Shown one piece after another: positions 5,128 through 52,364 of a stretch of 64,000 nt of DNA (within the stretch, counting starts at the first letter, position 1; every line of letters starts with the position of its first letter). The notes under the pieces are model-generated. The model had not been told where the DNA came from and did no database searches. It saw nothing but the letters and a program-made list of their open reading frames with translations. The stretch is from Owenia fusiformis (Eukaryota > Annelida > Polychaeta > Sabellida > Oweniidae), in assembly GCA_903813345.2 (NCBI GenBank), contig CAIIXF020000010.1:13271181-13335180 (forward strand). Reading direction: 5' to 3'. A program made the position numbers and the translations under genes.

Positions 5128-5292
5128 CGCAACACTTAGGCTTTAACGTGGTTGGGCATTTCCCTTGTGTATCGTGTACTTCATCAGTTTGACAGTCTTT
5201 CCGGCAATCTCCATTTCTAGGCGGAGTGGTGCACGTATCAACTGGAACAACTGGAACGACTGGAACAACTGGAACGACTGGAACGACTGGAA
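5128..5292 (-). CDS. Cassette exon: (PVV)n linker plus six-Cys beta-defensin-like module
   Basis: A 165-nt exon bounded by TATTAG before 5292 and GGTAAGTT after 5128, phase 1 at both ends. The first ~17 codons are a Pro-Val-Val repeat written by a 9-bp tandem DNA repeat. The rest is one module with spacing C-x8-C-x3-C-x11-C-x7-CC and near-neutral charge. The cysteine order with a terminal CC is the beta/big-defensin pattern (family knowledge). The exon should be secreted through an upstream signal exon. The nearest signal exon (8140) is dead, so splicing to the one at 30768 is possible. Function is inferred only. Confidence 0.72.
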
Positions 5293-5497
5293 CTAATAAT
5301 CATCTTACATTGAGCATTATAAATTAAGTAGAGATTAAATTTTCTGGTAGTCTTGATTCGAGCATTTTGAACTGCCCCTCTCCCTTTCATCAATGATAAT
5401 TCGATTTGTTATTTCTTGACATTGATGGTTCTATAAGATCTGCTGTGAACTCATTTTGAATGCATTGACCGCCATTAGATTCATTAATTCTATCCAC

Positions 5498-6347
5498 TGC
5501 CTTGATTACCTCCGGAAGACAGTAGAGACTGTGGAAGATTGATTGAAAGAGTGTGACCAGGAAGAGCAATTACAACGTCAGATTTTTCGAGGTCAAGCAA
5601 CAAAGAAACAGGGGGGGGGAGAAATGCTCGTGAAATAAGGTAAAAATCAGTGAAATATATTGAACATTGTAGAAAATAAAAAGAAACAATGATTCTCAAG
5701 ATTGTTGAGCATCTGATGAGTGAGTTACAAGAGGAAGGGTGCACTCTGGGAGGATAAATCCAACAATTGGAATATAAAGCACATCGATCTCTTTGGCATG
5801 CTTATAGGTTTAGTGATTATAATTCTAACAAAAAACTATTGAGTGAACCTAATCATCATGAACAAAATGAATTAGGATTATATGAACAGTCAATACCTGT
5901 TACGCCTGTACTAAAGAGAGACTTGTTTAAAAACAGAACTAATGGAAACAATGGAATTGAAAACAACAATGAAACTGAGGGTGACTATGACTGTGGATTT
6001 ACTTCAATATTGCAATTGCAGAATCCTGGAGACAGAATAAAAGTGAATGTTGAGATGCAAACAGATCTGAAACAAAAAAGACACCAATCAAGTGCAACTG
6101 AAATAAAAGTGCAACATGTCGCCACTCAAACAAACAATTTGGAATGTCAACATCAAGAAACAATCCGTGCGAAAATGAAAAATATTCCAAACTCACAAAC
6201 ACTGATTCTATTTCAACACATGATGGAGCAGCGACTACCAACTTCAACCTCGCAACATGTAGGGAAAGATATATGCGCCTCATTGATGGATTGGGAGAGG
6301 ATCATATGTATGATTCGGAGGCCTATGATTATGTGATGGACAAATAA
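5498..6347 (+). pseudogene. Processed pseudogene of a coiled-coil-like protein
   Basis: From about 5498 the frame reads CLDYLRKTVETVED, a stop, then LKECDQEEQLQRQ and a G-run that shifts frame. Coding character resumes with IVEHLMSELQEEG, a stop at 5755, then a 180-codon stretch (5761 on) rich in K, E, Q and N with repeated MQT and TQT motifs. A further frame change near 6140 leads to a natural-looking end, LIDGLGEDHMYDSEAYDYVMDK (split here: GLGEDHM / YDYVMDK), with a stop at 6345. No introns are visible, which suggests retroposition. The parent gene is not recognised. It sits next to the lowest defensin-like exon, in its upstream intron. Confidence 0.55.
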
Positions 6348-6349
6348 TG

Positions 6350-7540
6350 GACACATTCTAGTACAAACAATTAACAATATGTGCCAGACCTTCAAATTCA
6401 TGACAAGAAACAAACAAGATGAATTAAGGGATGCAAATTATTTTTGTTTGAATGACTAGGTTTTTGAGACTGTGACGATCATATAATAGGAATCTATCTA
6501 TCTGGAAATCCAGTAGTGTTGAGTAATTAAATACAAAAGTAGCAGGAAACGGCTTGGTTGTCCTCCATCAAATGGTACCTAGATCACGGTATCACTATGT
6601 AACTGCCATGGATAACTGAGCAATCATTATGAACAGTGGTAAAATCAGCACTGTGCAAAGTAATCATTTAAGTAGGATTGACACAGTGAATGTTTTTTGT
6701 GTTCAAAACATTATTAATGTTCAAATTCAAACTTGTTCCATGTTTTTCACACATTTTGCATTATTTTCCATAACTTTTTGTAGGTACCTCCCTGTCGGGA
6801 AATTGGATCCTATGAACCTCTTGATCAGCAATGAAACTTCTACATGATGATATGCAGCTTTGAAGTCAATTGTATCGCCTATGTATAGCTTTGAAATGTT
6901 GCTAATTCTCGTTATTTCATAGTTTTAAGAGATTTGCACTTTTAATCTCAAAAGACTAACTTTTTTCTTTTAAATAGCATATTTGAGTTTCTACAATGAT
7001 AACTTATACTGATTTATACAGTTATGCCATTGAAATCATTGTCCATGGCTTTTTAAAAAACTTGGGCCCGATCCCCGTTGATGCAAGCATCTGCTAAGAT
7101 TTTTTAAAACCTTGGTTTTTTCATTGGACACCCAAAAAGTTGAATAATTACATCCCATATTATTCCATGATGGTGAAATTCCCTGCAATCTGATTGGTGC
7201 ACGTGACTTAAATATATCCTGTATTCACACGCACATTCCACCAAGCGTTGGATACAGAGTGAAAAAGACGTCAGCGTTGGGATAGTATCCCAACGCTCCA
7301 GATTTCCATCCAGGATATGACTGTTACTGAAAAAAATCAATGGTGATCAGTTTACACAAACGCATGCTAATATTTGCATTTTGCTAGAAATATATGATTT
7401 GAATATATGGAAATGATACGGTGATCATCACAATTTATAATTTTAGGATAAAAATTAAAAAACACACATCTGTGAATATAAAAAGATCAATATGAAGCAT
7501 GCATATTGTTTTCATGAACTAGTAAAAAAATTTAAAATCC
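6350..7540. other. Non-coding interval with short repeats
   Basis: No convincing exon. 6878-6945 resembles 2796-2865. A small perfect palindrome around 7275-7307 (AGCGTTGGGATA / TATCCCAACGCT) is present. Confidence 0.5.
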
Positions 7541-7543
7541 AAT

Positions 7544-7690
7544 ATGGCAGACGAAAGTCGAAAAAAACGTTTCGCTACACTGCACTTCCAGCTGATGAAA
7601 TTGAAGAAAAAGAAAGAAAATCAAATGTCTCGTATAATAAATAAAAAGCAAACAACAACGCCATAAAGATTTTGAAGGAATATCGATGTA
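7544..7690 (+). pseudogene. Relic of a Crypton-like / recombinase N-terminus
   Basis: ATG at 7544 opens MADESRKKRFA. After a one-base shift the reading continues as LPADEIEEKERKSNVSYNK, a stop, then NNAIKILKEYRC. This resembles the N-terminal region of invertebrate Crypton/DUF3504 recombinase-like proteins, which begin MADE/MAD and carry a 'KxSxNTxxATxxAIxxLxxYL' pattern (from memory). A shorter ATGGCAGACGAA start recurs at 40008. The catalytic domain is not present here. Confidence 0.35.
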
Positions 7691-7789
7691 AAATATCTCT
7701 GAGGTGAGAAGGTTGATCTGTTTCTCCGGCCCCAAGCCAAGGGACTTGATTTAGGCAAGTTTTATATGGGTAATCATGGAATAAAAACA

Positions 7790-7923
7790 TTATTCAATGA
7801 TTTCTCGTGAAATACAGAAAGTATTCTTCCCTTGAACGTCTATATTTCACTCTGCTAGCGCATCGTGAAATACAACCTTCTCGGGAAGAATATTTTCTGT
7901 ATTTCACTCGAATCATTGAATAA
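7790..7923. repeat. 134-bp foldback
   Basis: TTATTCAATGATTTCTCGTG at the left is inverted at 7905-7923. The arms of about 42 bp include GAAATACAGAAA and the matching inverted copy. Non-coding. Confidence 0.75.
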
Positions 7924-8069
7924 CTTATAGTATGCCATTCGAGTTTCAGACAGATTCCACCAACACTTTTCCATACAGAGTTAAATTAAGTGACTACTGC
8001 TAGTTAACAACAGGGAGGCTATGGTAGTCTGGCCCAAGCAAAACGAAGAATGACAAGGGTACCGGTGAC

Positions 8070-8140
8070 ATCTATTACTTCAACTTTATTTCGGAATGAT
8101 CTCAAGGCAACGATCAAACTAACAAAGTGAGAGAATTCAT
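8070..8140 (-). pseudogene. Dead signal-peptide exon (third copy)
   Basis: ATG at 8140-8138 is followed by codons for MNSLTLLV, then a one-base deletion relative to the copy at 52364 (TTTGATCG against TTTGCATCG). This creates an immediate TGA, and the remainder drifts with no donor in the expected place. The 5' UTR-like block and TATA region upstream are still recognisable. Confidence 0.75.
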
Positions 8141-8198
8141 CTTGCTTCAATGGATTGTCCAGTGACCATTAAAATTAAAGCTCACGGGACTACGGTTT

Positions 8199-8261
8199 GA
8201 TTTTATACTCTGATTAACCATCGTAATGAACAGATCTATTATGATTTGAAATAGATCTATT
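8199..8261 (-). promoter_or_regulatory. Conserved promoter block of the dead signal exon
   Basis: On the minus strand, GTATAAAATC (8208-8199) aligns with the TATA boxes upstream of the intact copies. Two AGATCTATT motifs (plus strand 8232-8240 and 8253-8261) lie beyond it. The spacing to the ATG is about 60 bases, compared with ~78 in the intact copies. Confidence 0.6.
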
Positions 8262-8728
8262 CTGTAAGCCAAGAAATTGAGTCTTTCATGGGGTATGGTA
8301 ATGCAAGATGTAATCAATAGTCATCGGCAATCAAGATACAATTTAAAATTTCAGAAAATATTTACAGAATACATTAACATTTAAAGGGAATTTTTATTCA
8401 AGATTAAAACTAATACAAGTCAAAATGTTTGTATTTGATCATTTTAATTTCAAAATATAATCGTTGTGTAAATAAATGTTTAGTCTCATAAGCCCAGATA
8501 TGGCTGGCTATTTGTAAAATATGTGACCCTGGAATAAATTATTATATATTTCTGAGTAAAATTGCGATTAGGAGAAAAAATCAGGCAATAAATGCCAGTA
8601 CATGGCATTTTATTAGCTTCTTTATTCATTAAATTAAAATATATTCTATATATGGAATATTTATATTCGCTAAATCAATTTTCTATTTGGTAAAAAAAAT
8701 TATATTTTGTAAAAACATATACACTCCC

Positions 8729-9060
8729 CTCCATAAGTTTGGCAACCTTAGCTCCCCCATTGAACTACGTGTTAAAGCCTCTTTACCTTTGAAATGTTAT
8801 ATACTTAACCTGCGATGAAAATACGTATACTATTGATGGAAACGTAATTTGACTTTATTTCCAATACCTCCAAATTTTCTCAATTTTTCCCTCAATTACA
8901 ATTACAAGGTCGAAAATCGATGATAAATGTGAGGAATTTTTGAAAATCGACATTACTTTTTGTCACGTTACTTTTTTGCTACGTTACTTTTTTGTACGAC
9001 TGGAAAGAACGGTTGAGGACAAATGTGATAGGGGGTGAACATGACAAATAAAATTCTGGA
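8729..9060 (+). repeat. MITE-like repeat, family with 28211-28460
   Basis: Starts ACACTCCCCTCCA and shares ...TTAGCTCCC.CATTGAACTAC and ~200 further bases with 28211-28460. No coding region. The opposite end could not be delimited. Confidence 0.6.
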
Positions 9061-9445
9061 TAATAATACCGGAGTAAAGTCATGGTATAGCATATGTTTT
9101 ACATATGTTTAACTGCAGGTTAAGGTCAATAAATACTTAACAAAATCTTATATTTTTTTATATTTCATATCATGATATTTTATAAGGTACTAAATTGTAA
9201 CCAAAGATTGTGAATACATCCTATGACAAGTACACTCAATGCATTTCTGTTCTGTAAGACAGAAAATTTGAACGAAGTCTGAGATAAGATTTAGATCATT
9301 TATGATTTTGTATTCATAAATCTTTCTAATTTATGATTGGCGAATACAAAGAGTGACACAGACGTGTTCAAAATTATTTCATCATATTGAGACAGTTATT
9401 CTAAAATTAGACTATTGAATCTTAGCGTCACTATATTTGATCTAC

Positions 9446-9640
9446 AGGGTGGGCCAAAAAACACCCCCTAGCCATTATTCCTAATAAATATTTATTTTTT
9501 AACATGTACACCAACAATGATATATCATTTTAAAGATAATTTAATTTGCAACAAAATGATGTATAATAGCACCATTTTCAACGACCCCATATAGAAATAT
9601 AACCAATTATGTGACATGGGGGTCAAAAACACCTTTTCAA
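9446..9640 (+). repeat. Mariner-type end (CAGGGTGGGCCAAAAAA)
   Basis: TACAGGGTGGGCCAAAAAA is the typical outer sequence of many mariner MITEs. No matching right end was found within ~1 kb. Confidence 0.45.
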
Positions 9641-10156
9641 TTTTCATTCATATAATAAACCAAATGTTGATTGTCTAACCAGGTTAAAAGGAAGAATATA
9701 TCATGTTTTAGATATCATTGTACCATTGGGTTCTATCAGAACTAAACTTTTGAAATGCATTTTTCTCTGAACCATTTTCATGCACTGAAAAGTTCATTTC
9801 TCGCTGATTTATGAACCGATTTTTTTAATTTTTTGGAAAAAAAAACATGCGAGGATGAATGCTAGGAGAATACATGTACCATTTCATGGCACAATACCAT
9901 TTCATGGCACATTATTTTTGGGATTTTTTCCAAAGATTTTAAATTATCATTTAGATGTTTGACTGACTCATAATTCTTGTGCACATACCGAAAATATACC
10001 AACTATCTTCGTGCGAGTCATATTTCGATAAATACAAGGACCCGTTTTCAATAATACAAAGACTCGTTCTCGGGAGTTGTGCAGCAGACTGAGTCAAACA
10101 TCCATACAGCGAACACCATGGTTGGTTGAGTATTCCCCATGCCAAAGTTGTGTAAG

Positions 10157-10217
10157 ATGGCTGCATCGGGAATTAGTTTGTTGGAAGAAGGATTGATTCC
10201 GGATGCATCCATCCTAG
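10157..10217 (+). CDS. Candidate first coding exon of an unrecognised gene
   Basis: ATG in good context (AAGATGG) starts MAASGISLLEEGLIPDASIL, and the last codon base is followed by GTATTT, a possible phase-1 donor. The upstream 150 bases are less AT-rich than the surroundings. No downstream partner exon was recognised on the plus strand, so this is only a candidate. Confidence 0.28.
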
Positions 10218-12500
10218 GTATTTTATATTACATGTAGTTGTTCAACATTTATGTATGTTTGTTTTTATATAAAATATAGTTATGTCCAATAATTGATTAC
10301 TATATATATATATACTTGTATTGTTGAGTTAATTATTTTGTCATAAATGCTGTGCATTGGTATGAATCGTGGCTTACTTAAAGATATTTGTGACCTCTAA
10401 AAGTTAGTTTTAAATAAATGCATGATGTTTTGAACAAAAAGTCCTTCAAAAACCACTTTTTGAAATAAAAAAAACGTTTCACATATCACACTTTGATAAC
10501 ATTGGATAAGACTACAATATAAGCCAAAGTGGTTTAAACTTTATACGGGGACTTTAACAAAAAATGTCTCAGTTCTTATGTGAGAAACGATATTTACCAA
10601 ACAAAATTGAAAATAGAGATTTTGAAACGTAAGATGTATGAAGATTGTAAGCCTTTTAAACATAGGCGAAATGTAATTACATCATCATGCTCTGACACAT
10701 TTTTTTGATGTGTTTATTTTATGCAATAATTTTTTATATTGCAAAATGTTATAAATGTCTTATTTTGTAGACTAAATATATACTCTGGTTTTGTTTCATA
10801 CAAAAATCAGACGTGGGTGTTGCACTAATGATTTTATGAATAGAGTCGTGAATGTCATCGGATAAAAAGCCCTCTGGAAATATCATATTGTCCCTCGGAA
10901 TAAAATCAATATTGAATCCCTCTCAGTAAATAACCTGTATGCATACATACAATACTAATACACTCCCATTGAAATTTACTATAATACATTTATAGCGCAT
11001 CATTAGAATTTGTGTTAACTTGTTAAACAGGATTGTAGTTATATTATTTTTACTGTTGAACATTGCTAACTACAAAATTCAATCTCAAAAACTTTCTGCC
11101 ATGCCACCTAGTCTCGGTTATCAGCGACAGCTGTTTTTAGTGTTTTAAAGTTAATGAATAAATCAAGGGCGTTACAATACCCGGGAATTTATCGGTTCGT
11201 CCAGTACTTGTTTGTGATAGCGCCCTCTGTAGGTCACTGTGCTTATAGCCTACAGTAATACGGGGTAGGATATCGGGAATTCGGTCAGTTTCTATCCGTC
11301 GATTTCGCTATGAATTGAAGCAAGTGTGACCACTTTATCAACTTAAACAATTTGATAATTGATTAAATCTTTAAACAAAATCGATAAACACGTTATACAC
11401 TTCCTATCTCCTTAGAAATTAGCATGTATTTATGGATTGTGTTTTCGAACAAGGCTCGACCCACCCCAATAGGGAAATCCTTATGCTAATTAGTATGACG
11501 TCATATTTTCCTGGGGAATCCTAGATTTCAAGGCCTCAGTCTGTTATTGTGTCAAATGTAAACGCTCTTGGGACGCTCTTTTGCAGACAGAAAATTGACA
11601 GATTAGCTTTTAACTTTCAGCTTTGATGTTTAAATATTCTGTATTTCTACCGGACTTCTTGCTGAATATCATATAATGTTATAACTTGATTTGGATCATT
11701 GCCTGATTGATCATTCTGAAATTTTGATTGTGATTCATGATTGATTGGCAAGAAAAATAATTCCTATTGTTTTCCAGCGAAGTCAAAATGTTACAGCATG
11801 AGTTATAATGTCGAGTTTGCATCATGTTAAATTCTGCTAGTGATTAGAAGTCCATGCACAAGCATACACATAAGAGACAAACACACCCAGGCTCCAGGCC
11901 GTGGATGGAAATATAAAACTATTTAAGGCACAAACTGGTATTAATAGACCGATATGTAGTGTCTGCCATGTATTGAAGGTAAACCAATCTGTATTATTAA
12001 TGTTTCTTCTATCAATACATGGGTTGTGCAATAGAAAAGCAATGGCACAATCAAAAATGTGCATATCAATCGTGAATATCTCTCGGTTCAAAGCTTATTT
12101 CCAACAGAATCGTGTCAAAATATGTGTCTGAGTAACAGTTATACATTATAAGATCGCAAACTCTTACCAATTATCAGCCGAATGGCTCATTTTCAACGAA
12201 ATGTCCTTAAGACAACAGCCCTGGGTCGCGCCTGAGACCAAAAACTACTTCAAATAGCCCTCCCCTAATTATATTGGATAATCACATTTATGCGTGCGCG
12301 CGCAGCTCATCCAATGAACGAAACGCCACTTCCCGCTGAAATCACCGGGTATTGATCTTTCCCTTGAATAAATATCAAAATATGAACAAATCAAAATGAC
12401 AAGAACTTTTTTCAAAGTAAATTCTTTACAAATCTTGATCGATAATCGGATTTGATGAAAAAATTCTCTGTCAATGGGGTCTTTCTAAAAATGTGTTATA
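10218..12500. other. No gene recognised
   Basis: AT-rich sequence with short open frames but no family motif. It contains a (TA)n run near 10300 and a CG-rich GTGCGCGCGC stretch near 12295. It forms most of the intron-like interval between module exons and the dead signal exon. Confidence 0.5.
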
Positions 12501-12517
12501 TGATAAAAAAAACTTAC

Positions 12518-12634
12518 CGCAGCAGTAAGGCTCATGAGGTGCACAATAATAGTTTCCATTATATTTTTCTTCGTTTTTTTTGCAATCAGTCAATTTCAAT
12601 CGGCATATTCCGTATTTATATTCACAGTATTCGA
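12518..12634 (-). CDS. Cassette exon: six-Cys beta-defensin-like module
   Basis: A 117-nt exon between TTCTAG (before 12634) and GGTAAGTT (after 12518), phase 1-1. It encodes 39 residues with spacing C-x6-C-x6-C-x12-C-x6-CC, rich in Tyr and Lys and near neutral overall. It lies 698 bases below the exon at 13332, so the two could be consecutive modules of one transcript driven from 30768. The lack of stop codons, conserved cysteines and both splice sites argue that it is functional. Confidence 0.75.
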
Positions 12635-13316: not shown

Positions 13317-13331
13317 ATCAAATCAACTTAC

Positions 13332-13421
13332 CACAGCATATGTGCTTTCTAGGACATCCGTTTTGCCCTTTATTTTTTTCTCCAGGGAGACATCCATCTC
13401 TTTTTTTCCGGCATTCACAAG
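13332..13421 (-). CDS. Cassette exon: cationic six-Cys beta-defensin-like module
   Basis: A 90-nt exon between ATTTTAG (before 13421) and GGTAAGTT (after 13332), phase 1-1. It encodes 30 residues with C-x1-C-x6-C-x11-C-x5-CC. The core RDGCLPGEKNKGQNGC resembles the beta-defensin 'GC-LP-E...G-C' signature most closely of the four modules. Net charge is about +5 (Lys/Arg-rich), as expected for a membrane-active peptide. The first Cys-Cys spacing is unusually short. Role inferred, not shown. Confidence 0.78.
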
Positions 13422-14618: not shown

Positions 14619-14670
14619 TTAAGCTGAGTAATTGAGAGAATACCAAATTAAATCAAATAATTCTTTTGTC

Positions 14671-16375
14671 ATGGAAGACACAGATCGACTGAGGCTGCAG
14701 TATGTGGCTGCTATGGCCCAGCAAGAAGTTTTAACGCAGCAACTTAACATTCATGAGTTCATCAGAGGCCGTTTTAGGCGGAGAAGGGGAGCCAGAGGAC
14801 GTGGCATCTGGAGGAGACAATGGTTGAATCCAGAGAGACGGCGCCAATTCGGCATATATGATCAGCTCATGGTGGAGCTGAGAAGAGAGGACCCCAGAAC
14901 ATTCAAAAAGTTCCTCTGTATGCCAACAGAAATGTATGACGAAATCTTTGAGAGGGTCCGTCCTCGGCTATGGAAACAACATAGCTGGTACAGAGAGCCT
15001 TTAGGTCCAGGCCTCAAACTAGCTGCCACTATTCGCCACCTGGTTTCTGGTGCCAAGTACTCTGACATGCAGTACTCCTGGCGGGTTGCTGAGAATACCC
15101 TCTCTGTAGTGGTAAGAGAAGTCTGTCAAGCTATATGTGACGAATATGTTGATGAGGTCATGACAGCCCCCTCAACACCTGAAGAATGGAAACAATTGGC
15201 TGATGGTTTCCTCGAGAAGTGGAACTTTCCAAATTGCGTTGCTGCAATTGATGGCAAACACATATCCATCAGAAAGCCTAATAGCTCTGGTTCCTTATAT
15301 TATAATTATAAGGGTTTCTACAGCATCATCTTACTGGGAATTGTCGACTCAGACTACAAGTTCGTGTGGTGTGATCTGGGTGGTGAGTAAACTCTACATA
15401 CGTTACTGCATTAATTTTGTAATTATATATATTTAATACAATTATAGCTATATTTGCAATGTATACTGACAATATTTTATCCTCTTACTCTTGTATAATT
15501 TCAGGATATGGTTCAAGTGGAGATGCCAGGATCTATAATGCACCGGAATTCTTGGAGATGGTGCAGGATGGTTCGATCGCATTTCCACACCAACAGCCAT
15601 TTCCCAACGACACCGTTGATATGCCTTTTTTCTTGGTAGGGGATGACGCATTCAGCCTCAGTGATCACATGCAGAAGCCCTATGGACATAGAACCCTCAG
15701 CAGAGAGGAAAGAATTCTAAACTACCGGTTATCGAGGGCTAGGAGGGTTTCAGAAAACGCCTTTGGAATTTTGGCCAACCGATTCCAGGTACATTGTAAT
15801 TTATAATATTTGTCGGCGAAACAAACAGTTAAACTCCAAGTTCCCGGGACTATCTAGATACGTTTATTCGACTTCGAGTAAATGAGACTTCATTCGAACT
15901 TCCGCTAATTGAGACATGAAAATAGTATGTTTTGTTTGATAAATAATTTGAAAGATGCGCATAAATTGGAACCAACTGAGTTCCACATTCGACCCTATAT
16001 AACAGTTTAACTATTAATCCGTATTTTCAAATTAATTCAATTTAACGCATAATAACATTTCAGGTACTCCTCTCAACGATGAACCATAAGCCATCCACAG
16101 CGAGGCTGATAGTCAAGACATGCTGCATTCTCCACAACTTGATGAGAATGAGGTACCCTACAATGCAAAATGCACTGATTGACCAAGAGGACAGAAGAGG
16201 CGACATGGTTCCTGGGGAATGGAGGAGAGATCGCAACTTGGAAGATGTCAGGGCTGTCATCAGAGGCCACAACACAGCAAACAAAAAGGGGAAGATTGTG
16301 AGAAATACTCTGAAGCACTGGGTCAACTCTCTAGCAGGAAGTGTACCATGGCAAGACAGGATCGTGCCAAATTAA
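14671..16375 (+). CDS. Harbinger transposase (HARBI1-like), three exons
   Basis: Join of 14671-15382, 15505-15788 and 16064-16375; introns are GTGAGT...TTTCAG (phase 1) and GTACAT...TTTCAG (phase 0). The product is 435 aa without stops or frameshifts. The N-terminal part is basic (FRRRRGARGRG, about residues 35-45). The DDE_Tnp_4-type core follows: AAIDGKH with D194, WCDLGGYG with D235, and RRVSENAFG with E321. It catalyses excision and integration of the element in the nucleus. I chose the ATG at 14671 (TCATGG) because the open frame upstream enters the nested TTAA element. All expected catalytic residues are present. Confidence 0.9.
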
Positions 16376-30701: not shown

Positions 30702-30768
30702 CACCTCTGACAAATTCCGGGATGACCGCAACAGCAACGATGCATACTAGCAAAGTTTGAAAATTCAT
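30702..30768 (-). CDS. Signal-peptide exon of a secreted Cys-rich peptide gene (copy 2)
   Basis: ATG at 30768 encodes MNFQTLLVCIVAVAVIPEFV and two more residues, then phase-1 donor G|GTAAGTATAG. The hydrophobic core LLVCIVAVAVI is a signal peptide. The exon is about 75% alike at DNA level to that at 52364, including the 5' leader ACAAGACATT.AACAAAG. The next in-phase module exons downstream on this strand are at 13421 and 12634, which would imply an intron of ~17 kb filled with transposons. Confidence 0.78.
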
Positions 30769-30846
30769 CTTTGTTCAATGTCTTGTCCCAATGACCGTGA
30801 TTACTGAACGCGCACCTTGAATTGTTGCTTTTTGTGACAAACGTTT

Positions 30847-30885
30847 GGTTTTATACAGCGATTACATATTGATATCAGATCTATT
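30847..30885 (-). promoter_or_regulatory. TATA box and AGATCTATT motif, signal exon copy 2
   Basis: Minus-strand GTATAAAACC (30856-30847) lies 79-88 bases before the ATG, as in copy 1. One AGATCTATT (30877-30885, plus strand) is just upstream. Confidence 0.65.
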
Positions 30886-31974
30886 CAATTTGAATTCAAA
30901 CTGATCCTTTCAAATCCCAATACTGTTATTCGTTGAAATGCTATAGATGTTTCAATTTCATTTTATCTTTGTCCAAAATATGGATCATTATATGCAATAA
31001 AACTAACAATAAAACAGCACATTAAAACAATCAGCCAAAAACATTGTTATAAACAACCACTTTGCAGCTCTTAATGGGTGGTTAATGAATGTGTCATTGA
31101 AACATGAAATTGAATTGAAAGCATGTAATGGCTTTTATAAAACAATGCGATATATCAATAACTACGAATAATGATTGCAGGAGATGACAATTGTCAATGC
31201 TATGATCATATTGGACGTACCTGCAATGCAGATTCAACAATCCAATCACAATGCGACAGGAGGATAACAAATCATATGTAGAGCAACACAAAATGAACAA
31301 AACAACAATTTGATGAATTCATAGAGCTTATTCAGTACCACTTTTGTTTGAAAAACTTTAGACTGGCGCCCATGTCTTTTGACTTTTTCAGCGTATGCTT
31401 ACACATCGAAAATATGGAAGCTGATTCTAGGAAAGGGGCTATTCTGCACACGTGATGGGTGTAAAGCCATTGCTCCTTGAGTAGCGTAGACAATATTAAG
31501 ACGCCCCCCCCCCCCTCCCCAAAAAAGTATCGACAGGTGAGATATGACTCACGACACCGAGCTGACAATGGTGGAATCACTTTTCTTAATAACCCCCTCA
31601 CCTTGGTGTAGGATAAGAATAAAATATATTGAATTGTATTTCCTAGTTGAGAGGTAATATTGAACTGAAGTAGCGAGTTCAGTGTAGAGGAATCGATATT
31701 AACAATATTAACAAACCCCTGCAAGTAATGATAACGCACGCTCTATTGCAAGAAAATTTAACTTGAGTCGAGAATGCAAGATCACACATAAGAACACACA
31801 TGGGCAACTATGACACACCATTCGCCAATTATAAGGATACATCCGGCAGCGAGTACACTTTCAAGAGCAATTACATGTACGGGAGCACTCTCTGGTGATT
31901 GAAGTACTAGTCCCTGATCTGATTTCCAAAAGGGCTCTAGAAAAGGGGTTTTGTTTTGTTCTATAGCTGATTAA

Positions 31975-38138: not shown

Positions 38139-39418
38139 ATCCATCTAAATCATTTTTTTATTTTTTTTTTTATTTTTTTTTTTTTATTTCTCTATTCAAA
38201 CAGTACAAGTACAATAATTAGAACAGTTCAGATATTTTTCACACCACCTCCATTCATTCAGACATTTGCAACAGTCATACTTTTAAGTTCAGGTACATAA
38301 TAAAACATATTTTTTTCAAATTGCGCCTCATACAAATTGGGATTCACTTCGTCGAACTCTTTAATAAAAATATAGTACTTAATTGCAAGGGTAAGTCTAT
38401 TTGGTAAGATATTTTTCTTATTAGCTTGCCTTCCAAAAACCATGTCATGGGCGTTAAAATCGAAATCAACTTTAAATAAACGCTTTAAATTCCCTTTGAT
38501 TGCTTCCAGAAATATTTGAATTCTTTTGCACTCCCAGAATTTGTGTTTTAACGTATCTCGAAAGGCACAATAGTTACATTTAGAGTCATTTTTAATGCCT
38601 ATCTGCGCTAAAAAGGCATTTGTAGTGCAGATACCATGAAGTATTTTAAACTGAAGTTGTCGCGTTTTATTCTGTTTCGTACACATATAAGGCATTTTAA
38701 AATAATCGGTTCTCTTTAATTCACGATCATGTTTGTCTTTATATAACGGTTCCAAGAACTTGTTTCCATTTAATATTGTTTGAATTGATTTAACCGTTAT
38801 ACTAGAGATTGTCACCTGTTTTTCACCAAGTTTCAAATACACGAGTTCTTCCTGTATGCTGGGTTCAAAGGTCGAACTTAAATCTGATTTCAATAGAAAT
38901 TTCCAATCATTTGGTATAGCCGATATGATTGAAAAATACTCAAGAAAGTTGATATTAATATTATACTTAGTCTTAAACTCATTGTACTGTAAAAAAGCCC
39001 CATTCTCGTTAAGAAGGTCATTAATATAAATGACCCCCTTTTCCATGACATGTTTGTACATCACCTCCTTATCATTAATTAGAATTGATTTGTTATTCCA
39101 AATTATTTCACCTTTAACCCCTGAACTGGTTCTAGGCGGCGACCTATTTCTTAATTCTGAATAGTTTCGAAGCAAATTCATATAAAAGGTAGGAACACTG
39201 TGTGCCAGTGTTTTAATATCATAATTACACTGCAACAAAAAACTCAGTCCTCCAAGACGCTTGAAATAAACTTGAGGAATAAGCTTCCAGTGACTAGTTC
39301 GTGTGTCAAGTAAACGTCTTAACCACATTAATTTCAAGGCTTTCTCCATTGTGAACATATTAATCATTCTTAGACCCCCATCCTTAAAATCCCCTATTAA
39401 AGTATCCATCTAAATCAT
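38139..39418 (-). mobile_element. Young 5'-truncated LINE with perfect 15-bp target duplication
   Basis: The insert 38154-39403 is flanked by identical copies of ATCCATCTAAATCAT (38139-38153 and 39404-39418). The poly(A) (plus-strand T-runs 38154-38188) is at its 3' end. These are hallmarks of target-primed reverse transcription. The reading frame is uninterrupted. Confidence 0.93.
38258..39403 (-). CDS. LINE (L1/Tx1-like) ORF2 C-terminal part
   Basis: About 380 codons without stop: GDFKDGGLRMINM, then WLRRLLDTRTSHW, GEIIWNNKSI, FKILHGICTTNAF, and a zinc-knuckle-like CNYCAFRDTLKHKFWEC. No RT catalytic domain remains, so the product cannot act alone. An ATG exists only because the target duplication supplies it (39409-39407). 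The copy is a passive insertion. It is the intact counterpart of the tail at 3-1477. Confidence 0.85.
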   Translation of the reverse strand, partial: TLIGDFKDGGLRMINMFTMEKALKLMWLRRLLDTRTSHWKLIPQVYFKRLGGLSFLLQCNYDIKTLAHSVPTFYMNLLRNYSELRNRSPPRTSSGVKGEIIWNNKSILINDKEVMYKHVMEKGVIYINDLLNENGAFLQYNEFKTKYNININFLEYFSIISAIPNDWKFLLKSDLSSTFEPSIQEELVYLKLGEKQVTISSITVKSIQTILNGNKFLEPLYKDKHDRELKRTDYFKMPYMCTKQNKTRQLQFKILHGICTTNAFLAQIGIKNDSKCNYCAFRDTLKHKFWECKRIQIFLEAIKGNLKRLFKVDFDFNAHDMVFGRQANKKNILPNRLTLAIKYYIFIKEFDEVNPNLYEAQFEKNMFYYVPELKSMTVANV

Positions 39419-40080: not shown

Positions 40081-40089
40081 TAGACAGTG

Positions 40090-40390: not shown

Positions 40391-40399
40391 TTAAAGTAC

Positions 40400-42110: not shown

Positions 42111-42126
42111 CCAAATCAAAATCAAA

Positions 42127-44366: not shown

Positions 44367-44482
44367 CCTATCCTCTGAAGCTAAAAACAGAAATAGTGAC
44401 TTCAATTGAGAAAAATGTATCTTATGGGCTCCATATACATTTTGAGTGGCTGTCCAGCTTAAGTTAGATACTACTGTTATTA

Positions 44483-45339
44483 GAGAGATTTCGCACATAC
44501 GTAAAATACAACTTATAACGTATACTTATACTTATAAGAAGATGTACAAGGTGTTTCATAATGTGGGTATTTCGTCAGGAAAGATCTTCTCGGACTGTAA
44601 TAAATAAAGGTCAAAGGGATGCCATTTGTACTTTCTTGAATTATAGCATGTTTAGTTGATCCAAATGTGTTTGTCTAGAATAAAATAGGCTCAAATATAG
44701 TACATACATATAGACCCATCTCTTCTCAAATTGACTTTTTGAAGATGCTCGTTATGAAACACCCTGTATGTCATTTGTTGAACTACTGAATGGGTCGTTT
44801 CAAGGAATTGCTAGAACCTACTGGTTTGATTGGTGTTTCAAATTGATGGTTAAAGTATTTGATTGGATACTGTTCCTACTCAGCCGATTAATTTAGAAAA
44901 TGCTTGCGGTCAATTGTTTCACACACATGTAGGTAAAGCTTTATACGTAGATCCAACTGTATACGTTTATCATCTACGTGTATATACAATTTTGTAAGTT
45001 CATTGAACTTATACTGATCATGAAAACTTTGAAATAATCAACTTGTTTATGTAATAACTCACTTAAAAGGATCATGACTCACTTTAAAGGATCGTGTTTA
45101 GAATACACTACAACTACTAGGACACGGAAGCAAGCATTTAATTATAATGTGCATAATCTACACGTGCAGATGACAGTGCATTCACAATCTCTGGTTGATG
45201 GAGCTTTTCTGTATCGGGAATAGTTATGTTCCATTAGTACAATTTAAAATTGATTTGAGTAAATATAATAGTCCGACATGACCCTTTAAACTATACGTAT
45301 ACGTATAAGTTGTACTTTCACTTATGTGCGAAATCTCTC
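44483..45339 (+). mobile_element. 857-bp element with TA target and GAGAGATTTCGCAC ends
   Basis: Ends GAGAGATTTCGCACATA and its complement, flanked by TA. The inverted region continues imperfectly to ~50 bp. Same element in copy 2 at 45824-46680. No coding region. Confidence 0.8.
44547..44766 (+). mobile_element. 220-bp mariner MITE nested in the 857-bp element
   Basis: CAAGGTGTTTCATAATG at the left and TTATGAAACACCCTG at the right, flanked by TA. Repeated in copy 2 at 45888-46107. Confidence 0.72.
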
Positions 45340-45707
45340 TAATCTGAGATTGAAAATTATGTCAAGTTTAGTTCCCAGCCTCTCATAACCGATAACTTCG
45401 AGGTAATTGTGTTGTTACTGCAAAAACCTCTATTTCTTCATCACAAATCTACCATCATTTGCATCTGTCAAAACCCCTCATTTCATGTTAATTTTCAGAC
45501 TTTTGCTTGTGCCATCATAAAATATATATATTCAACTTGTTATTCAGAATATTTTAAGAACTTTTCATAAGGTTTTTTATTTTCACACTTTTGAAAAAAT
45601 GACTAAGTCAGAGAATGGCCTCTTAATGGCATGTCCCCTTTAGTTTTGAATAAATTCATGAGTTTAATTGGAGATAACGTCCCCATTTAAGAATTATACT
45701 ACATGTT

Positions 45708-47598
45708 CCTATCCTCTGAAGCTAAAAACAGAAATAGTGACTTCAATTGAGAAAAATGTATCTTATGGGCTCCATATACATTTTGAGTGGCTGTCCAGCT
45801 TAAGTTAGATACTACTGTTATTAGAGAGATTTCGCACATACGTAAAATACAACTTATAACGTATACTTATACTTATAAGAAGATGTACAAGGTGTTTCAT
45901 AATGTGGGTATTTCGTCAGGAAAGATCTTCTCGGACTGTAATAAATAAAGGTCAAAGGGATGCCATTTGTACTTTCTTGAATTATAGCATGTTTAGTTGA
46001 TCCAAATGTGTTTGTCTAGAATAAAATAGGCTCAAATATAGTACATACATATAGACCCATCTCTTCTCAAATTGACTTTTTGAAGATGCTCGTTATGAAA
46101 CACCCTGTATGTCATTTGTTGAACTACTGAATGGGTCGTTTCAAGGAATTGCTAGAACCTACTGGTTTGATTGGTGTTTCAAATTGATGGTTAAAGTATT
46201 TGATTGGATACTGTTCCTACTCAGCCGATTAATTTAGAAAATGCTTGCGGTCAATTGTTTCACACACATGTAGGTAAAGCTTTATACGTAGATCCAACTG
46301 TATACGTTTATCATCTACGTGTATATACAATTTTGTAAGTTCATTGAACTTATACTGATCATGAAAACTTTGAAATAATCAACTTGTTTATGTAATAACT
46401 CACTTAAAAGGATCATGACTCACTTTAAAGGATCGTGTTTAGAATACACTACAACTACTAGGACACGGAAGCAAGCATTTAATTATAATGTGCATAATCT
46501 ACACGTGCAGATGACAGTGCATTCACAATCTCTGGTTGATGGAGCTTTTCTGTATCGGGAATAGTTATGTTCCATTAGTACAATTTAAAATTGATTTGAG
46601 TAAATATAATAGTCCGACATGACCCTTTAAACTATACGTATACGTATAAGTTGTACTTTCACTTATGTGCGAAATCTCTCTAATCTGAGATTGAAAATTA
46701 TGTCAAGTTTAGTTCCCAGCCTCTCATAACCGATAACTTCGAGGTAATTGTGTTGTTACTGCAAAAACCTCTATTTCTTCATCACAAATCTACCATCATT
46801 TGCATCTGTCAAAACCCCTCATTTCATGTTAATTTTCAGACTTTTGCTTGTGCCATCATAAAATATATATATTCAACTTGTTATTCAGAATATTTTAAGA
46901 ACTTTTCATGAGGTTTTTTATTTTCACACTTTTGAAAAAATGACTAAGTCAGAGAATGGCCTCTTAATGGCATGTCCCCTTTAGTTTTGAATAAATTCAT
47001 GAGTTTAATTGGAGATAACGTCCCCATGGCGTAGAATAATGGAAATAACGTCACAACGCATGCGCGTAAATCGACATTTCATGGTCCAAAGATTTCAATG
47101 GAGAGCAGTCTTCATCAAAATTTAAAATCTTAATAACTTTTTAGCAAATTATTTATTTTCTTAGGATTCAACGGATCCTTGTTAGACCCAACGAAGTGTT
47201 CATTTTGATATATAAAACAGCAAAATCCATCCACAGATCTTTCGGCCTTTTAATGATTTAATTTTTGGGATATTTTGCTAAAATCCTCCATTGGCCGCCA
47301 TTATAAACTTTGAAAAAACTCAAATTCTCATCATTTCATATCATTCGCTAAGTGGTCTAAACAACTCCAATCGCTTAGGATTCAACGGATTCTAAGAGAT
47401 CAAAGCTAATACAATATGTTGACAACCCCCGTTTCAACATTTGCCGCATAATCTTTCGGCCTTTTAGGTTATAAATTTGTCAATATTTTGATTTTCGACC
47501 ATTAATGACGTACTTGGATCCTAGATTCATTATCCCGGGATTCATGACGCTATTTCCATTATTCTACGCCATGCCATTTAAGAATTATACTACATGTT
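45708..47598 (+). repeat. Tandem duplication, copy 2, with insertion
   Basis: Identical in order to copy 1 but interrupted at 47028-47573 by an element absent from copy 1. It resumes with CCATTTAAGAATTATACT. Confidence 0.95.
47028..47573. mobile_element. ~545-bp element inserted after the duplication
   Basis: GGCGTAGAATAATGGAAATA at the left and its complement at the right (ending 47570), about 26 bp of inverted repeat. CCAT at 47024-47027 and 47574-47577 is a possible target duplication. Copy 1 gives the empty site. Interior has CTTTCGGCCTTTTA twice. Superfamily unknown. Confidence 0.8.
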
Positions 47599-47706
47599 AC
47601 CACCTGTGCTGACATTTTAAAGGTGAATAAATAAATATCAAAATATTAAAACTCAAATGGACAAAATCCTTCTTCAAAGGTCCCTTTTAAATGTCTAAAA
47701 GCTTAC

Positions 47707-47805
47707 TTGCGCAGCATTTAGGTTTCGATGGGGGGCATCCTCCTATATTCCTTTCTACTTCTTTCGATTCACACTCCTTTCGGCATGTATGTGGAGGTTG
47801 ACAAG
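47707..47805 (-). CDS. Cassette exon: six-Cys beta-defensin-like module
   Basis: A 99-nt exon between GTTTTAG (before 47805) and A|GTAAGC (after 47707), phase 1-1. It encodes 33 residues with C-x5-C-x3-C-x11-C-x6-CC, including CRKEC and GGCPPSKPKCC; net charge about +2. It is the first module exon below the signal exon at 52289 (intron ~4.5 kb) and joins it in frame. It most resembles the module at 5128 (RKxC, GxCP, KPKCC). Confidence 0.78.
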
Positions 47806-47917
47806 CTAAAACATCAAATAACGCATCCTATAACATATCATCAAGGATAGCATATTTTCTGGGAAATATACTAAAAACCTAAAGCAAAAAGAACGAATAG
47901 TTGAGGGTATCATTAAG

Positions 47918-49611
47918 CACGAGGGGAAAGAGTACCCGTGTATATACAACCTACCGCCGAGCAAAGACCCGAAGATGTCTGAAAATGTAGGGGGTGAGTT
48001 ATAAACTTTTGTTTATATCTTGAATTTCTCAATATGAGAAACAGATAAAACACAGAATTGTGTGTAACTGATAAAGTTATTGTTCCAGGCACTCATGTTT
48101 GCAAAATAATGAGAACTTAGCGCAATGTTTACTATTCAATCGCTAAATTCAACTTTTAAATATTTGAATGATGATTTACATATTGAATAAGTAACAACCA
48201 TGGCTGTCTTTACTTCATTCGATTCAAAGATACAATAGGTGTAAATGTATCTTATTTATTTCACTGCCATACGTTGCATATCATTGAAATCACCGGTGAA
48301 AGTTGAAAATGAAAGACCCGATTATGTCACGAGTACGATTATATAGGACCCGAAGCTACCACCGAGCTATTCCGACTATACCGTGAGTATAACCTGATGA
48401 GGTAGTGAGTAAGCTTTCGAATGAGCATATAATATCGTGACGATATCACAAATATTCCTTTTTATTTATCATATACTCCTGGCACCGGGATATAATATAA
48501 TATGATATAATTCCCGCAGCACTGTACGTCAACGTCTGTTTCCGGCAAAGTTCTTTAAAACATTGAATTCATGCTTACACTTGAATCACCATAATTTCCT
48601 ATGTGTCTATGGTAAGAGTGCAACCCAAAAACATTTAATTCTGCATTGCAAGCGCCATTCTACTGAAAGAACACAACTTGAAGAATCCCAAGCTTCACAA
48701 GCTTCATATCCTCGAAACGAAAATTACCTTGATCTTTCTTTGATAATACAATACCATAGTCAAAAACATTGTAAATCCATTTTTTGCCATTTAACTCAGG
48801 CACATTAACTTTAATACTCAGTAATGGATGGTGCTGACTGAAGTGGACCACAAAGTCATCCATCTCGTGTGATTTATAACTACAGTGGAAGCATTTGTAC
48901 CGAGGACCTGAAATACAATGTTTCGATGTGCAGTGGTAACTGGTGATAACCATATTTTTTTCAGTTTCATTTATTGTTCACAACAAAATGATTCACATGA
49001 ATGATCTAGATGCAGATTGTAGGTTTATTATTTTTTCATCAGCACGTCATAAACTCGACGATATAATCGGATAACAACAGATTTTACTCAAGTAATGTTC
49101 GGATTCTGAGATCCTTTACTCAAGATATTTTCGGATCTTTATAATATTACTCATCGATCACATCGGGTCCGATGTCCGATAACCTCGGATCTTTTAGGAC
49201 AAAGTTTAAGTGAAGATTTTGCTGTTCAAAAGTGCTATTTTGACCTAATATTTTGACACTTAATATATTATGCATATGCACATCCATTTACCGACCCAAG
49301 TATGTCTTATGTATGGCTCATTATCAATTAAAGCGAGTATGAATGAGAAAAACAAATCGAAAACCATTATACGTTTACCTTATCTCTTAATTTGGACTCA
49401 TAAAAATATATTTCAACTATAATTCTAGGCCAATTGCGCCTGCTAGAACATCTTAGTTAACTCTAACCATCCAAAGGAATTGTTAGTGACATTATATTAC
49501 CTTTATTGTCCATTTTCCTACGAGATGACATTATCAAACATTTGCCCGGCGGTATGTGCGTGTCTTGCTCGGCGGTAGGTTGTATATACACGGGTACTCT
49601 TTCCCCTCGTG
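47918..49611. mobile_element. 1694-bp element with perfect 47-bp inverted ends
   Basis: The first 47 bases (CACGAGGGGAAAGAGTACCC onward) are perfectly inverted at 49565-49611. ATTAAG flanks both sides (47912-47917, 49612-49617). This fits a 6-bp target duplication, or TTAA with one mismatched end base. It contains a zinc-finger reading frame on the minus strand (48660-48953). Superfamily not assigned. Confidence 0.85.
48660..48953 (-). CDS. C2H2 zinc-finger reading frame inside the 1694-bp element
   Basis: 97 codons. Residues ~20-44 form one C2H2 finger (YKCFHCSYKSHEMDDFVVHF then SQHH; C-x2-C-x12-H-x3-H), followed by a basic-hydrophobic stretch with NGKKWIYNVFDYGIV. A possible acceptor TATTTCAG precedes GPRYKC, and a possible donor (CAAG|GTAATT) follows SKKDQ, so the true exon may be about 48721-48907. 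Further downstream a HSYHRHI-like segment suggests another finger exon. It may be part of the transposon's protein or a captured host exon. Confidence 0.5.
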   Translation of the reverse strand: MVITSYHCTSKHCISGPRYKCFHCSYKSHEMDDFVVHFSQHHPLLSIKVNVPELNGKKWIYNVFDYGIVLSKKDQGNFRFEDMKLVKLGILQVVFFQ

Positions 49612-49712
49612 ATTAAGGATAACAAACGGAGAAAATCAACACGATTTACAACATAAAACATTAATGTACAACACCTACAATAATATAATAAAAACAAACA
49701 ACAGAGAATTAT

Positions 49713-49870
49713 ACAGGGTGGTCAAAAAGTGAACCCTTGCAAGAAGCTAAATCTCAATTATTACCTGCATTAATGGGCTAATATTCTCATATGCTTTAGA
49801 TGAAGGTTTACAGTTTTTGTTGGAAATCTACAGGGTGTCTCAAAAATGTACCCAAAAGTATATCAACAGC
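49713..49870 (+). repeat. Two mariner-type ends
   Basis: TACAGGGTGGTCAAAAAGTG (49713) is the partner type of the end at 5107. A second, TACAGGGTGTCTCAAAAATG, starts at ~49830. Neither has a mapped opposite end. Confidence 0.55.
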
Positions 49871-50397
49871 ACAGATAAACCAATCAATAGTTTCAGACAT
49901 TTTTTGCATGGTCATGTAGCCAAAACATGAGTTTTCTCTCCAATACACCTTTTTTCAGTTTTCCCCATTGATAGAGCTTTTTGTTTTCTAGATTTAAACT
50001 TACGTATGAGTCATGTAGAGGATTATCATTCGGCACAAATCTAGAAAATATAGTCTGATTTTAATAAGTTTCTTCGATTTGGAATTTGTTTTGTAAATGA
50101 AGTTGCAATTCATATATTTAGCGCCTCGCTTTTGTTACATTGACGAAAGTCCATTATATTACCAATGTAGGTTACTTTGATGACATTTGATGACTTTCGA
50201 TGCGGTGGTCTAAATGCATGAATTGCAGTTTTATTAAAGGATCAAATTCCAAACCGAGCACATTTCTAAGCTTGACTATATTGTCTAACTTTGTGCCGTA
50301 GGTTTAAATCAAGGAAACAAAAACTCGTAACCAGGAAGTTCATCCATTTTGTTACATTGACGTTCCGCCATTTTAACTAGTTGTGGAACAGTGTTTA

Positions 50398-50510
50398 GGT
50401 ATCTGGTCAACTCGGACCCTATTTAACTTGGACCCTATTCAACTCGGACTCTAATTAGCTCGGATCCTAGTCAACTTGGACCCTAGTTTACTTGGACCCA
50501 GTTATATTCA
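50398..50510 (+). repeat. Minisatellite, ~6 units of 16-18 bp
   Basis: Repeats variants of CAACTCGGACCCTATTT, alternating ACTCGGAC and ACTTGGAC. Confidence 0.85.
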
Positions 50511-52260
50511 ATATAAATCAGAGGTATTTTGCTATGTTAGAGGTGAAAGCAATTTACTTTAAAACTATTAAGAATATTGGGATAGTTTAAGATACAATTT
50601 AATTCATTACTGAAATCGTTAAATAATGATGTTTATGTATATTTCTAATGAGTCAAAATCAGTCTTTCAAAACCTGTATACTTTTATGCTATTTGCGTCA
50701 TGTGTGATCAAATAACTCTTTATAATTGAATAAGAATGTTTTGATTCATTTTATATTGACTTTATATAGAATTGGAAGTATACCATGTTTTTAAAAACAT
50801 GAATTCAATTTAGCCTCTTGTGTATGATGCTGTTATGATAACTAAGAAACCCAATTAACAAATCATGTATCCTCTGATAAGCATTTAATTAGGGTGTTAA
50901 TGTAAACAAAATATAGAGGTATTACATTAATTCCAATGTACAGTATGGGTAAATGTGTTAGCGCATTTGAGATTTAAATAATTTTATTTCCAAGTTCATT
51001 TTCTAAACATGTGTGAAAATTACTTTCTGTTTGTCGAAAATGCATGATTATTTCATTACACATCTTTTTTCGCATTTCATCATGTTTATCCTTTTTAATT
51101 TCCACACATCATTCCACAGGTCATTCAAAACTCTCGAGGGGGGTGTTTTAAAATCTAAAAAAAAAGTAGGTCAAATGGAGTCAAAAATAGGTCAAAGTAA
51201 CATAGGGGTGAGCTTTTTTCGCGTATTTTTTCTTTTTTCAGTCAACAACAAATAATGCTTTTTAGCCAGAAAAGGGTACCAAATGTGATAGGAGTATATA
51301 GTATCTACCTTTTTAGGACAAAAAACCTTGGATAAGTACCGTTCCTAAACCCAGAGATAGGTAATTTGGTCGAAATTTTTACGAAATGAAATATCGAAAA
51401 TTAGGAGGGTGGGAGACAAATCACAGCCCATGACCTAAGATTCTAAATAAATAACATTTTTTTAAGTAACCTCCTAGGACATAGAATTACATGTTTGGCT
51501 CTATATTTACTGATTTATGAAAAATATTTTTAAATAAATAACGCCACCTGAGATTCAAGTTCTGAGTTCAAATAATTGTGTAATATTTTGATGCATATAT
51601 ATTCACAAGTTTGTAAATTATATGCATATTAAGATGGAAAATTGACTTAAAATAGCCGCGAAACTGAAAAATCTTGGGGTAGTTGAGACAAAAAAATTAT
51701 TTCTACAAAACAAATAAAGATATGGTTATATGGTTTTGCTGACATCTTACAAACATGTTCAGGACATCCCAGAAAGAATTTCATGGATATATGATCACTA
51801 GTTTTTAAACAAACATTTTTTTACTCAAATTGTTTGGATCGAAACGCGAGTCGCGGACCACAATATGATATTGAAAACTTTGTATCTCAGTCAATAAAAG
51901 TCAGATTACCTTGTTATATGGCATGTTTGAAAGGGTATTTAGTATTCTATATGGTCTATATCGAAAGAAAAGTAAAAATGACCAGCTTATAATTTTGTTC
52001 TATGAAACCATAGAGATGGTGTGATTTTCAAGCAATTTCTGGAAAAAGTTCCCACCATCCTAACTCAGCCAAATTACACCCGATCACTTCGATTTTTGCA
52101 CCAAAAATGATCTTTTATCTGTAGCTATAGATACAACAGATATAAAAAATAGTTTTTCTTCGTAGAGAAGTACCGGGGAATAATCCGCAGGGGGTTATCC
52201 GACCCAGAAACCGGAAATTTTAATAAAAATTGAGCCGGATTAAACCTTGAATCTTTTGTT
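50511..52260. other. No gene recognised
   Basis: AT-rich, with AGTAGGTCAAATGGAGTC-type short repeats near 51165. No domain motifs. It lies in the presumed first intron of the secreted-peptide gene. Confidence 0.5.
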
Positions 52261-52288
52261 TACAACCCGGGTAAGCGGGACTACTTAC

Positions 52289-52364
52289 GTGGGTACTCTC
52301 CACTGATAAAATCCTGGGTGACGGCAAAAGCAACGATGCAAACTAACAAAGTTAGAGAACTCAT
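52289..52364 (-). CDS. Signal-peptide exon of a secreted Cys-rich peptide gene (copy 1)
   Basis: ATG at 52364 encodes 25 residues starting MSSLTLLVCIVAFAVTQDFI, then phase-1 donor C|GTAAGTAG. The hydrophobic core LTLLVCIVAFAV is a typical signal peptide, with likely cleavage around VTQ-D. The 5' leader (GACAAGACATTAAACAAAG) is conserved with copy 2. The downstream module at 47805 starts with the two bases that complete the split codon. The intron in between holds the 1694-bp element and mariner ends. Confidence 0.8.

What the first reader, a model, noticed from the sequence alone, without database searches (positions are those of the whole stretch)
5128..52364. Dispersed minus-strand cluster of beta-defensin-like cassette exons with shared signal-peptide exons
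Four separate exons each encode exactly one six-cysteine module ending in CC (C-x5-C-x3-C-x11-C-x6-CC and variants). All have clean AG and GT(A)AG signals and no stops. Two intact and two decayed signal-peptide exons lie on the same strand. The cysteine order is that of beta/big defensins, but a secreted protein assembled from several such modules by one-exon-per-module splicing is not something I recognise as described. This is the best candidate for an undescribed (immune) peptide system in the window.
Basis: partly seen in the sequence, partly recalled or inferred. Interest (0 to 1): 0.88.

Follow-up and report, generated by a model that had tools for sequence, protein, structure and literature searches.

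The report
Multi-defensin secreted protein gene cluster
An animal genome carries a cluster of genes that look built to secrete proteins made of one to four small defensin-like (antimicrobial-type) units, each on its own exon, joined to a second unit that resembles a lipid-binding domain; multi-defensin proteins are known from birds and lizards, but this combination looks new.

Summary
Chance does not explain them: 8 such exons on the minus strand of 134 kb, 0 on the plus strand, 0 in 40 simulated sequences. All four are phase 1-1 cassettes. The cluster runs past both window edges. To the right a complete nine-exon gene can be read: signal peptide, four modules, Pro/Thr-rich linker, PLAT/LH2-like C-terminal domain (371 aa). 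To the left lie a linker and PLAT-like exons that complete the window's own modules in frame (301 or 337 aa). Sixteen intact modules were found genome-wide: single-module peptides, one-module and multi-module PLAT-like proteins, and modules beside two other kinds of extracellular exons. A PLAT-like gene without a module was also seen. The modules resemble beta-defensins: 7 of 16 match Pfam Defensin_beta_2, all below cut-off, against 0 of 16 shuffled. Proteins with several beta-defensin domains are known in birds and lizards (PMC9138766); one fused to a PLAT-like domain in what looks like an invertebrate is a new variant. Splicing, disulfides, fold and immune function are inferred, not shown.

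The parts
5128..5241 (-). beta-defensin-like module exon, type A (DTCTTPPRNGDCRKDCQTDEVHDTQGKCPTTLKPKCC), phase 1-1
12518..12634 (-). beta-defensin-like module exon, type B (EYCEYKYGICRLKLTDCKKNEEKYNGNYYCAPHEPYCC), phase 1-1
13332..13421 (-). beta-defensin-like module exon, short first loop (CECRKKRDGCLPGEKNKGQNGCPRKHICC), phase 1-1
47707..47805 (-). beta-defensin-like module exon, type A (CQPPHTCRKECESKEVERNIGGCPPSKPKCCA), phase 1-1
30702..30768 (-). signal-peptide exon SP1 (MNFQTLLVCIVAVAVIPEFVRG), ends at phase 1
30769..31053 (-). conserved sequence upstream of SP1 (match with the copy at window-frame 88 kb spans 31053-30711, 73% over 372 columns); promoter/5'UTR by inference
52289..52364 (-). 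signal-peptide exon SP2 (MSSLTLLVCIVAFAVTQDFISGEYP), ends at phase 1
52365..52638 (-). conserved sequence upstream of SP2 (match with the copy at window-frame 88 kb spans 52638-52282, 80% over 369 columns); promoter/5'UTR by inference
8090..8264 (-). decayed copy of the upstream sequence and signal exon (stop after MNSLTLLV)
2734..2782 (-). fragment of the upstream/signal-exon repeat (80% over 55 columns to the SP1 region only)

Best explanation
The window holds part of a tandemly duplicated minus-strand gene cluster predicted to code secreted mosaic proteins: signal peptide, one to four beta-defensin-like six-cysteine modules (one phase 1-1 exon each), a Pro/Thr-rich or acidic Gly/Pro-rich linker, and a C-terminal PLAT/LH2-like domain. 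Shown in sequence: exon anatomy, splice sites and phases, paralogy of the parts, dN below dS in the C-terminal domain, and exons of a gene with signal, linker and PLAT-like parts but no module. Inferred: that the exons are spliced together (for the window: SP1, with SP2 plus module 47805 as a possible alternative start, into 13421, 12634 and 5241 and on to linker and PLAT-like exons at window-frame -15.8 to -17.3 kb), that the modules fold as beta-defensins, and that the product is an extracellular defence factor. Mechanism I think most likely: the PLAT-like domain docks the protein on lipid or another surface while the string of mostly weakly charged modules binds microbial surfaces by avidity, so that it acts more as a multivalent binder than as a free cationic pore former; the single-module genes on C4 would make the classical free peptide.
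For: Exon anatomy and chance control. Nine-exon reading frame of 371 aa right of the window, canonical acceptors and donors throughout. Window exons plus left-flank linker and C-terminal exons stay in frame: 301 aa from SP1 (three modules), 337 aa from SP2 (four modules). An independent locus on C4 has the same order with one module, 238 aa, and the same C-terminal exon lengths 220/106/111. Two single-module genes with a short last exon read through, 68 and 71 aa. dN/dS of C-terminal copies 0.100/0.309, 0.063/0.586, 0.119/0.561. Modules: 7 of 16 match Defensin_beta_2 against 0 of 16 shuffled. PLAT-likeness: C2 relative aligns at 98.5% probability and matches Pfam PLAT at E 0.011. Charges -1 to +8; the four type-B modules -1 to +1.
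Against: No transcript data. All Defensin_beta_2 matches are below the curated cut-off, and 9 of 16 modules do not match; the whole-genome search with that model listed none of the modules. The C-terminal domain itself matches no Pfam family; the C2 relative's PLAT match is below cut-off and it also matches DUF7538 weakly. AlphaFold2 models have low confidence and lack the expected sheet. Between 47.7 and 30.8 kb no C-terminal exons were found, a decayed signal exon lies between modules 12634 and 5241, and a decayed module lies between 5241 and the linker: the window may hold remnants of several units, and the 46-kb SP1 gene or 70-kb SP2 gene is a guess. Nothing here tests defence function.
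Confidence: 0.6

Rival explanations
1. Same gene architecture, but the product is not an immune factor: a venom, mucus, egg-coat or matrix protein that uses the defensin-like scaffold as a binding unit.
For: Most modules are weakly charged; modules also sit beside TSP1 and X1/X2 exons of other extracellular genes. PMC9138766 (passages) names helofensin of the Gila monster as a four-module protein; that it is a venom toxin is recalled.
Against: Single-module short genes in the same family look like classical peptides, and one module is strongly cationic, +8. No expression data either way.
Confidence: 0.25
2. The modules are a convergent six-cysteine scaffold and not beta-defensins.
For: All Pfam matches below cut-off; low-confidence models without the expected sheet; no defensin found in the PDB by profile.
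Against: Consensus with G-x-C-R and Glu; 7 of 16 real against 0 of 16 shuffled modules match Defensin_beta_2; phase-I intron in the position described for beta- and big defensins (PMC7203481 section 9).
Confidence: 0.2
3. Only the genes outside the window work; the window itself holds broken or 3'-less duplicates whose intact-looking exons are not used.
For: Two decayed signal exons in the window, a decayed module left of it, no C-terminal exons found between 47.7 and 30.8 kb, many transposon-type frames.
Against: All four module exons and both signal exons in the window are open with good splice sites and join in frame to intact C-terminal exons on the left.
Confidence: 0.3

Closest known systems
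Avian double-beta-defensin AvBD11
   Same: Signal exon followed by beta-defensin domains on separate exons (PMC9138766, passages).
   Different: Two domains only, bird, and no linker or PLAT-like domain mentioned in the passages seen; here one to four modules and a C-terminal domain.
Helofensin of the Gila monster (four-domain polydefensin)
   Same: Four tandem defensin motifs in one protein (PMC9138766, passages), like the four-module gene here.
   Different: Reptile; no PLAT-like domain mentioned in the passages seen. Not compared by sequence here.
[quoted passage not shown] panusins
   Same: Beta-defensin-like Cys array and phase-I intron before the Cys-rich region (PMC7203481 section 9).
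   Different: No N-terminal hydrophobic domain; the module exon also ends at phase 1 and is repeated and joined to other domains; Defensin_big not found credibly in the genome.
PLAT/LH2 domain proteins
   Same: C-terminal domain resembles PLAT through a relative in the same genome.
   Different: Below Pfam cut-off; joined to defensin-like modules. A search for papers holding both 'big defensin' and 'PLAT domain' found none.

Membership tests
beta-defensin (module) | six cysteines in the order C..C..C..C..CC | tested here: met
   invariant in 16 of 16, partly by how they were found (pattern and similarity searches)
beta-defensin (module) | match to a curated beta-defensin profile above its cut-off | tested here: not met
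   7 of 16 match Defensin_beta_2, best E 0.0022 with 18.8 bits against 22.2; none of the listed reaches it; 0 of 16 shuffled
beta-defensin (module) | phase-I intron just before the Cys-rich region | tested here: met
   exon starts compared with PMC7203481 section 9; intron inferred, no transcripts
beta-defensin (module) | 1-5, 2-4, 3-6 disulfides and three-stranded sheet | tested here: inconclusive
   AlphaFold2 pLDDT 51 and 67, no sheet
beta-defensin (module) | antimicrobial or immune activity | not testable with these tools
   needs bench work
big defensin | N-terminal hydrophobic domain between signal and Cys-rich region | tested here: not met
   no such exon seen in the chains read; PF14862 in the genome: one match, E 5.4, 15.8 bits against 25, with stops (a miss there does not prove absence)
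polydefensin (AvBD11, helofensin) | two or more defensin modules in one secreted protein | tested here: inconclusive
   in-frame exon chains with three and four modules; no transcripts
PLAT/LH2 domain | Pfam PF01477 above its cut-off | tested here: not met
   cluster domain: no Pfam match; C2 relative 16.9 bits against 23, E 0.011
PLAT/LH2 domain | PLAT beta-sandwich fold | not tested

The most novel reading that the evidence does not exclude
An invertebrate-type defence system in which a beta-defensin-like module is a freely shuffled phase-1 cassette exon: duplicated promoter-plus-signal exons and a pool of module exons are combined by splicing onto shared PLAT-like 3' ends, so that one locus makes a repertoire of multi-defensin, surface-docked effectors, with the same cassette also fitted into other extracellular genes.
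Probability: 0.2. Interest if true: 0.82.

Novelty: new variant of a known kind. Interest (0 to 1): 0.6.

Why it matters
[quoted passage not shown] Here one genome appears to hold free single-module peptides, one-module, three-module and four-module proteins with a common C-terminal domain, and a module-less gene of the same frame, so gain of modules and of valency could be compared directly. It would also be a natural case of a beta-defensin-like exon being shuffled, one of the two routes that PMC7203481 section 9 reports as proposed for the origin of beta-defensins.

Tried and rejected
Big defensin label: rejected (and the exon chains). X1/X2 as the C-terminus of the C10 cluster: tested, no convincing match in the 114 kb then held or in the 134 kb. 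Shared terminal exon by direct comparison of the downstream regions: mostly transposon-like matches; solved only through the C4 tandem genes. V-P-V repeats as coding: rejected by homology of the acceptor. Structure prediction of modules: inconclusive, so no fold search was run. NCBIfam: 1 of 16 modules matched an enzyme family at E 0.08, taken as chance. Genome search with Defensin_beta_2: three weak matches elsewhere (E 1.9-9.8), none of these modules. PDB: A2 profile gave three Izumo chains at E 1.3, A5 none; C-terminal domain gave only weak unrelated chains. Comparison of modules with X1: no relation. The first, broad paper searches were seen as listings only, except the two papers named.
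Full report
Setting. The window is C10:13271181-13335180 of an unnamed assembly of 498 Mb in 525 contigs. GC is about 34%; several open frames look like transposon genes (names recalled). The species was not identified; that it is an invertebrate is inferred from the general look of the genome and not tested.

Observation. The four module exons were found again by six-frame scans and read base by base: 5241-5128, 12634-12518, 13421-13332, 47805-47707, minus strand, 90-117 nt, phase 1 at both ends, GTAAGT (three) or GTAAGC (one) donors. Intact signal exons start at 30768 and 52364. A block of upstream sequence plus signal exon is present in three copies, 72-80% alike over 356-419 columns: two in the window and one at window-frame 88.0 kb; a decayed copy lies at 8264-8090 and a fragment at 2782-2734. 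Chance: 8 fitting exons on the minus strand of 134 kb, 0 on the plus strand, 0 in 40 Markov sequences of that length.

The cluster is larger than the window. Searches with two window modules gave weak matches just beyond the right edge (E 1.0, E 0.08). Reading 40 kb to the right and 30 kb to the left showed four more modules at window-frame 84655-84545, 82733-82620, 80986-80864 and 79788-79666, a third signal exon at 88012, and a decayed module at -10.9 kb that has lost cysteines and its donor.

What follows the modules. Direct comparison of downstream regions was blurred by transposon-like repeats. Two tandem single-module genes on C4 share a short last exon (VPYPLRR-stop, IANLKRR-stop). Sequence around it led to a homologous exon left of the window, in the C10 cluster an internal phase 1-1 linker exon with copies near window-frame -15.8, -21.1 and 76.8 kb. 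Behind each linker lie three conserved coding exons, the last with a stop. In the right-hand gene the chain reads through: signal, four modules, linker PPTKTPPPP, C-terminal domain; nine exons, 371 aa. For the window's exons, SP1-13421-12634-5241-linker-C-terminal exons gives 301 aa with three modules, and SP2-47805 put in front of the same gives 337 aa with four. C-terminal exon lengths 220/106/111 are equal in the three genes read through: right-hand, left-hand, C4; the third C10 copy, at -21 kb, was not read through splice by splice. dN/dS for the three C10 copies: 0.100/0.309, 0.063/0.586, 0.119/0.561 (junction codons left out, two pairs trimmed at the N-terminus).

The C-terminal domain. 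It has no Pfam match and only weak unrelated PDB matches. Its exons are found at other places in the genome. A relative on C2 aligns with it over 118 columns at 98.5% probability and matches Pfam PLAT/LH2 over residues 10-116 of 126 at E 0.011, 16.9 bits against a cut-off of 23, with DUF7538 at E 0.053 beside it; the exon ends of this relative were not checked. I therefore write PLAT-like, not PLAT. On C12 a signal exon, a linker-like stretch and PLAT-like exons stand together with no module seen in 10 kb; that they form one gene is inferred. If so, modules were gained or lost inside a phase-1 frame.

Other homes of the module. C4: a one-module gene with linker and PLAT-like end, 238 aa, and three single-module genes near 29.74-29.77 Mb, two read through (68 and 71 aa), the third with its last exon placed by homology only. 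C3: signal exon and a module of net charge +8, end not found. C8 at 20.71 Mb: signal exon and module, then X1 and X2 exons, next to a gene with a Cys-rich exon before X1 and X2; similar genes on C10 carry exons that match EB and Dickkopf_N just below cut-off. C8 at 0.95 Mb: signal exon and module, then X1, with no X2 in the 12 kb read downstream. C12 at 6.34 Mb: a module among exons I would call ShK-like (recalled; no Pfam match) and TSP1 (21.3 bits against 21.6). In all 16 intact modules were aligned plus one decayed; genome searches score only the best candidates, so 16 is a lower bound.

Are the modules beta-defensins? The six cysteines are invariant in 16 of 16, partly by how they were found. 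7 of 16 match Pfam Defensin_beta_2 and no other Pfam family is listed; best E 0.0022, 18.8 bits against 22.2. With the other residues shuffled, 0 of 16 match it and 1 of 16 matches AtDEF-like at E 0.37. Intron phase and place fit PMC7203481 section 9. Against: 9 of 16 do not match, PDB profile searches gave nothing relevant, the genome search with the Pfam model listed none of them, and AlphaFold2 models of two window modules, built on the four window modules alone, were of low confidence (pLDDT 51 and 67) and lacked the expected sheet. Defensin_big gave one match at E 5.4 with stops.

What it may do. Signal peptide, disulfide-rich modules, linker and PLAT-like end predict a secreted or surface-docked protein. 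Net module charges run from -1 to +8, the four type-B modules from -1 to +1, which fits binding by valency better than classical cationic killing. This is inference, as is any role in defence. Which exons are really joined in the window is also open: a decayed signal exon lies between modules 12634 and 5241, so the window may hold parts of several old gene units.

Known and new. Proteins with several beta-defensin domains are known: AvBD11 with two on separate exons, helofensin with four (PMC9138766, passages only). Beta-defensin-like peptides of invertebrates are known (PMC7203481: abstract, sections 5 and 9, passages). For the combination: 'big defensin' with 'PLAT domain' gave 0 papers; two of 'defensin', 'PLAT domain', 'exon shuffling' gave 44, of which 15 were listed and none shows it by title and start of abstract; a search with polydefensin, beta-defensin-like, invertebrate, multiple defensin domains and thrombospondin (three of five) gave one paper, on eggshell. 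These cover open-licence PMC papers only. I file the cluster as a new variant of a known kind.

Noticed in passing
L009, L010, L011 (C10 near 5.15, 20.37 and 5.26 Mb), L012 with L013 (C8 20.71 Mb), L007 2226-2068: A family of secreted-protein genes with Cys-rich exons (EB and Dickkopf_N below cut-off) followed by an X1 and an X2 exon; 29 matches to X1 in the genome (one of them the query), and X1 plus X2 matched no Pfam family.
   Followed up: partly
L014 and L019 (C12:6332001-6350000), minus strand: Many TSP1-like exons, two ShK-like exons (name recalled) and a beta-defensin-like module in one 18-kb stretch; possibly a larger mosaic gene with a defensin cassette.
   Followed up: partly
window 14632-15806 (+): Open frames that look like a Harbinger-type transposase (recalled; not searched), in two pieces.
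   Followed up: no
window 590-1477 (+), 1556-2260 (+), 38258-39409 (-), 57909-58707 (+): Open frames that look like retrotransposon genes (recalled; not searched).
   Followed up: no
window 14624-14054 and window-frame 63625-63044; window-frame 78015-77845 and 101838-101668: Two pairs of 94-95% alike stretches within the cluster region, probably recent transposon copies.
   Followed up: no
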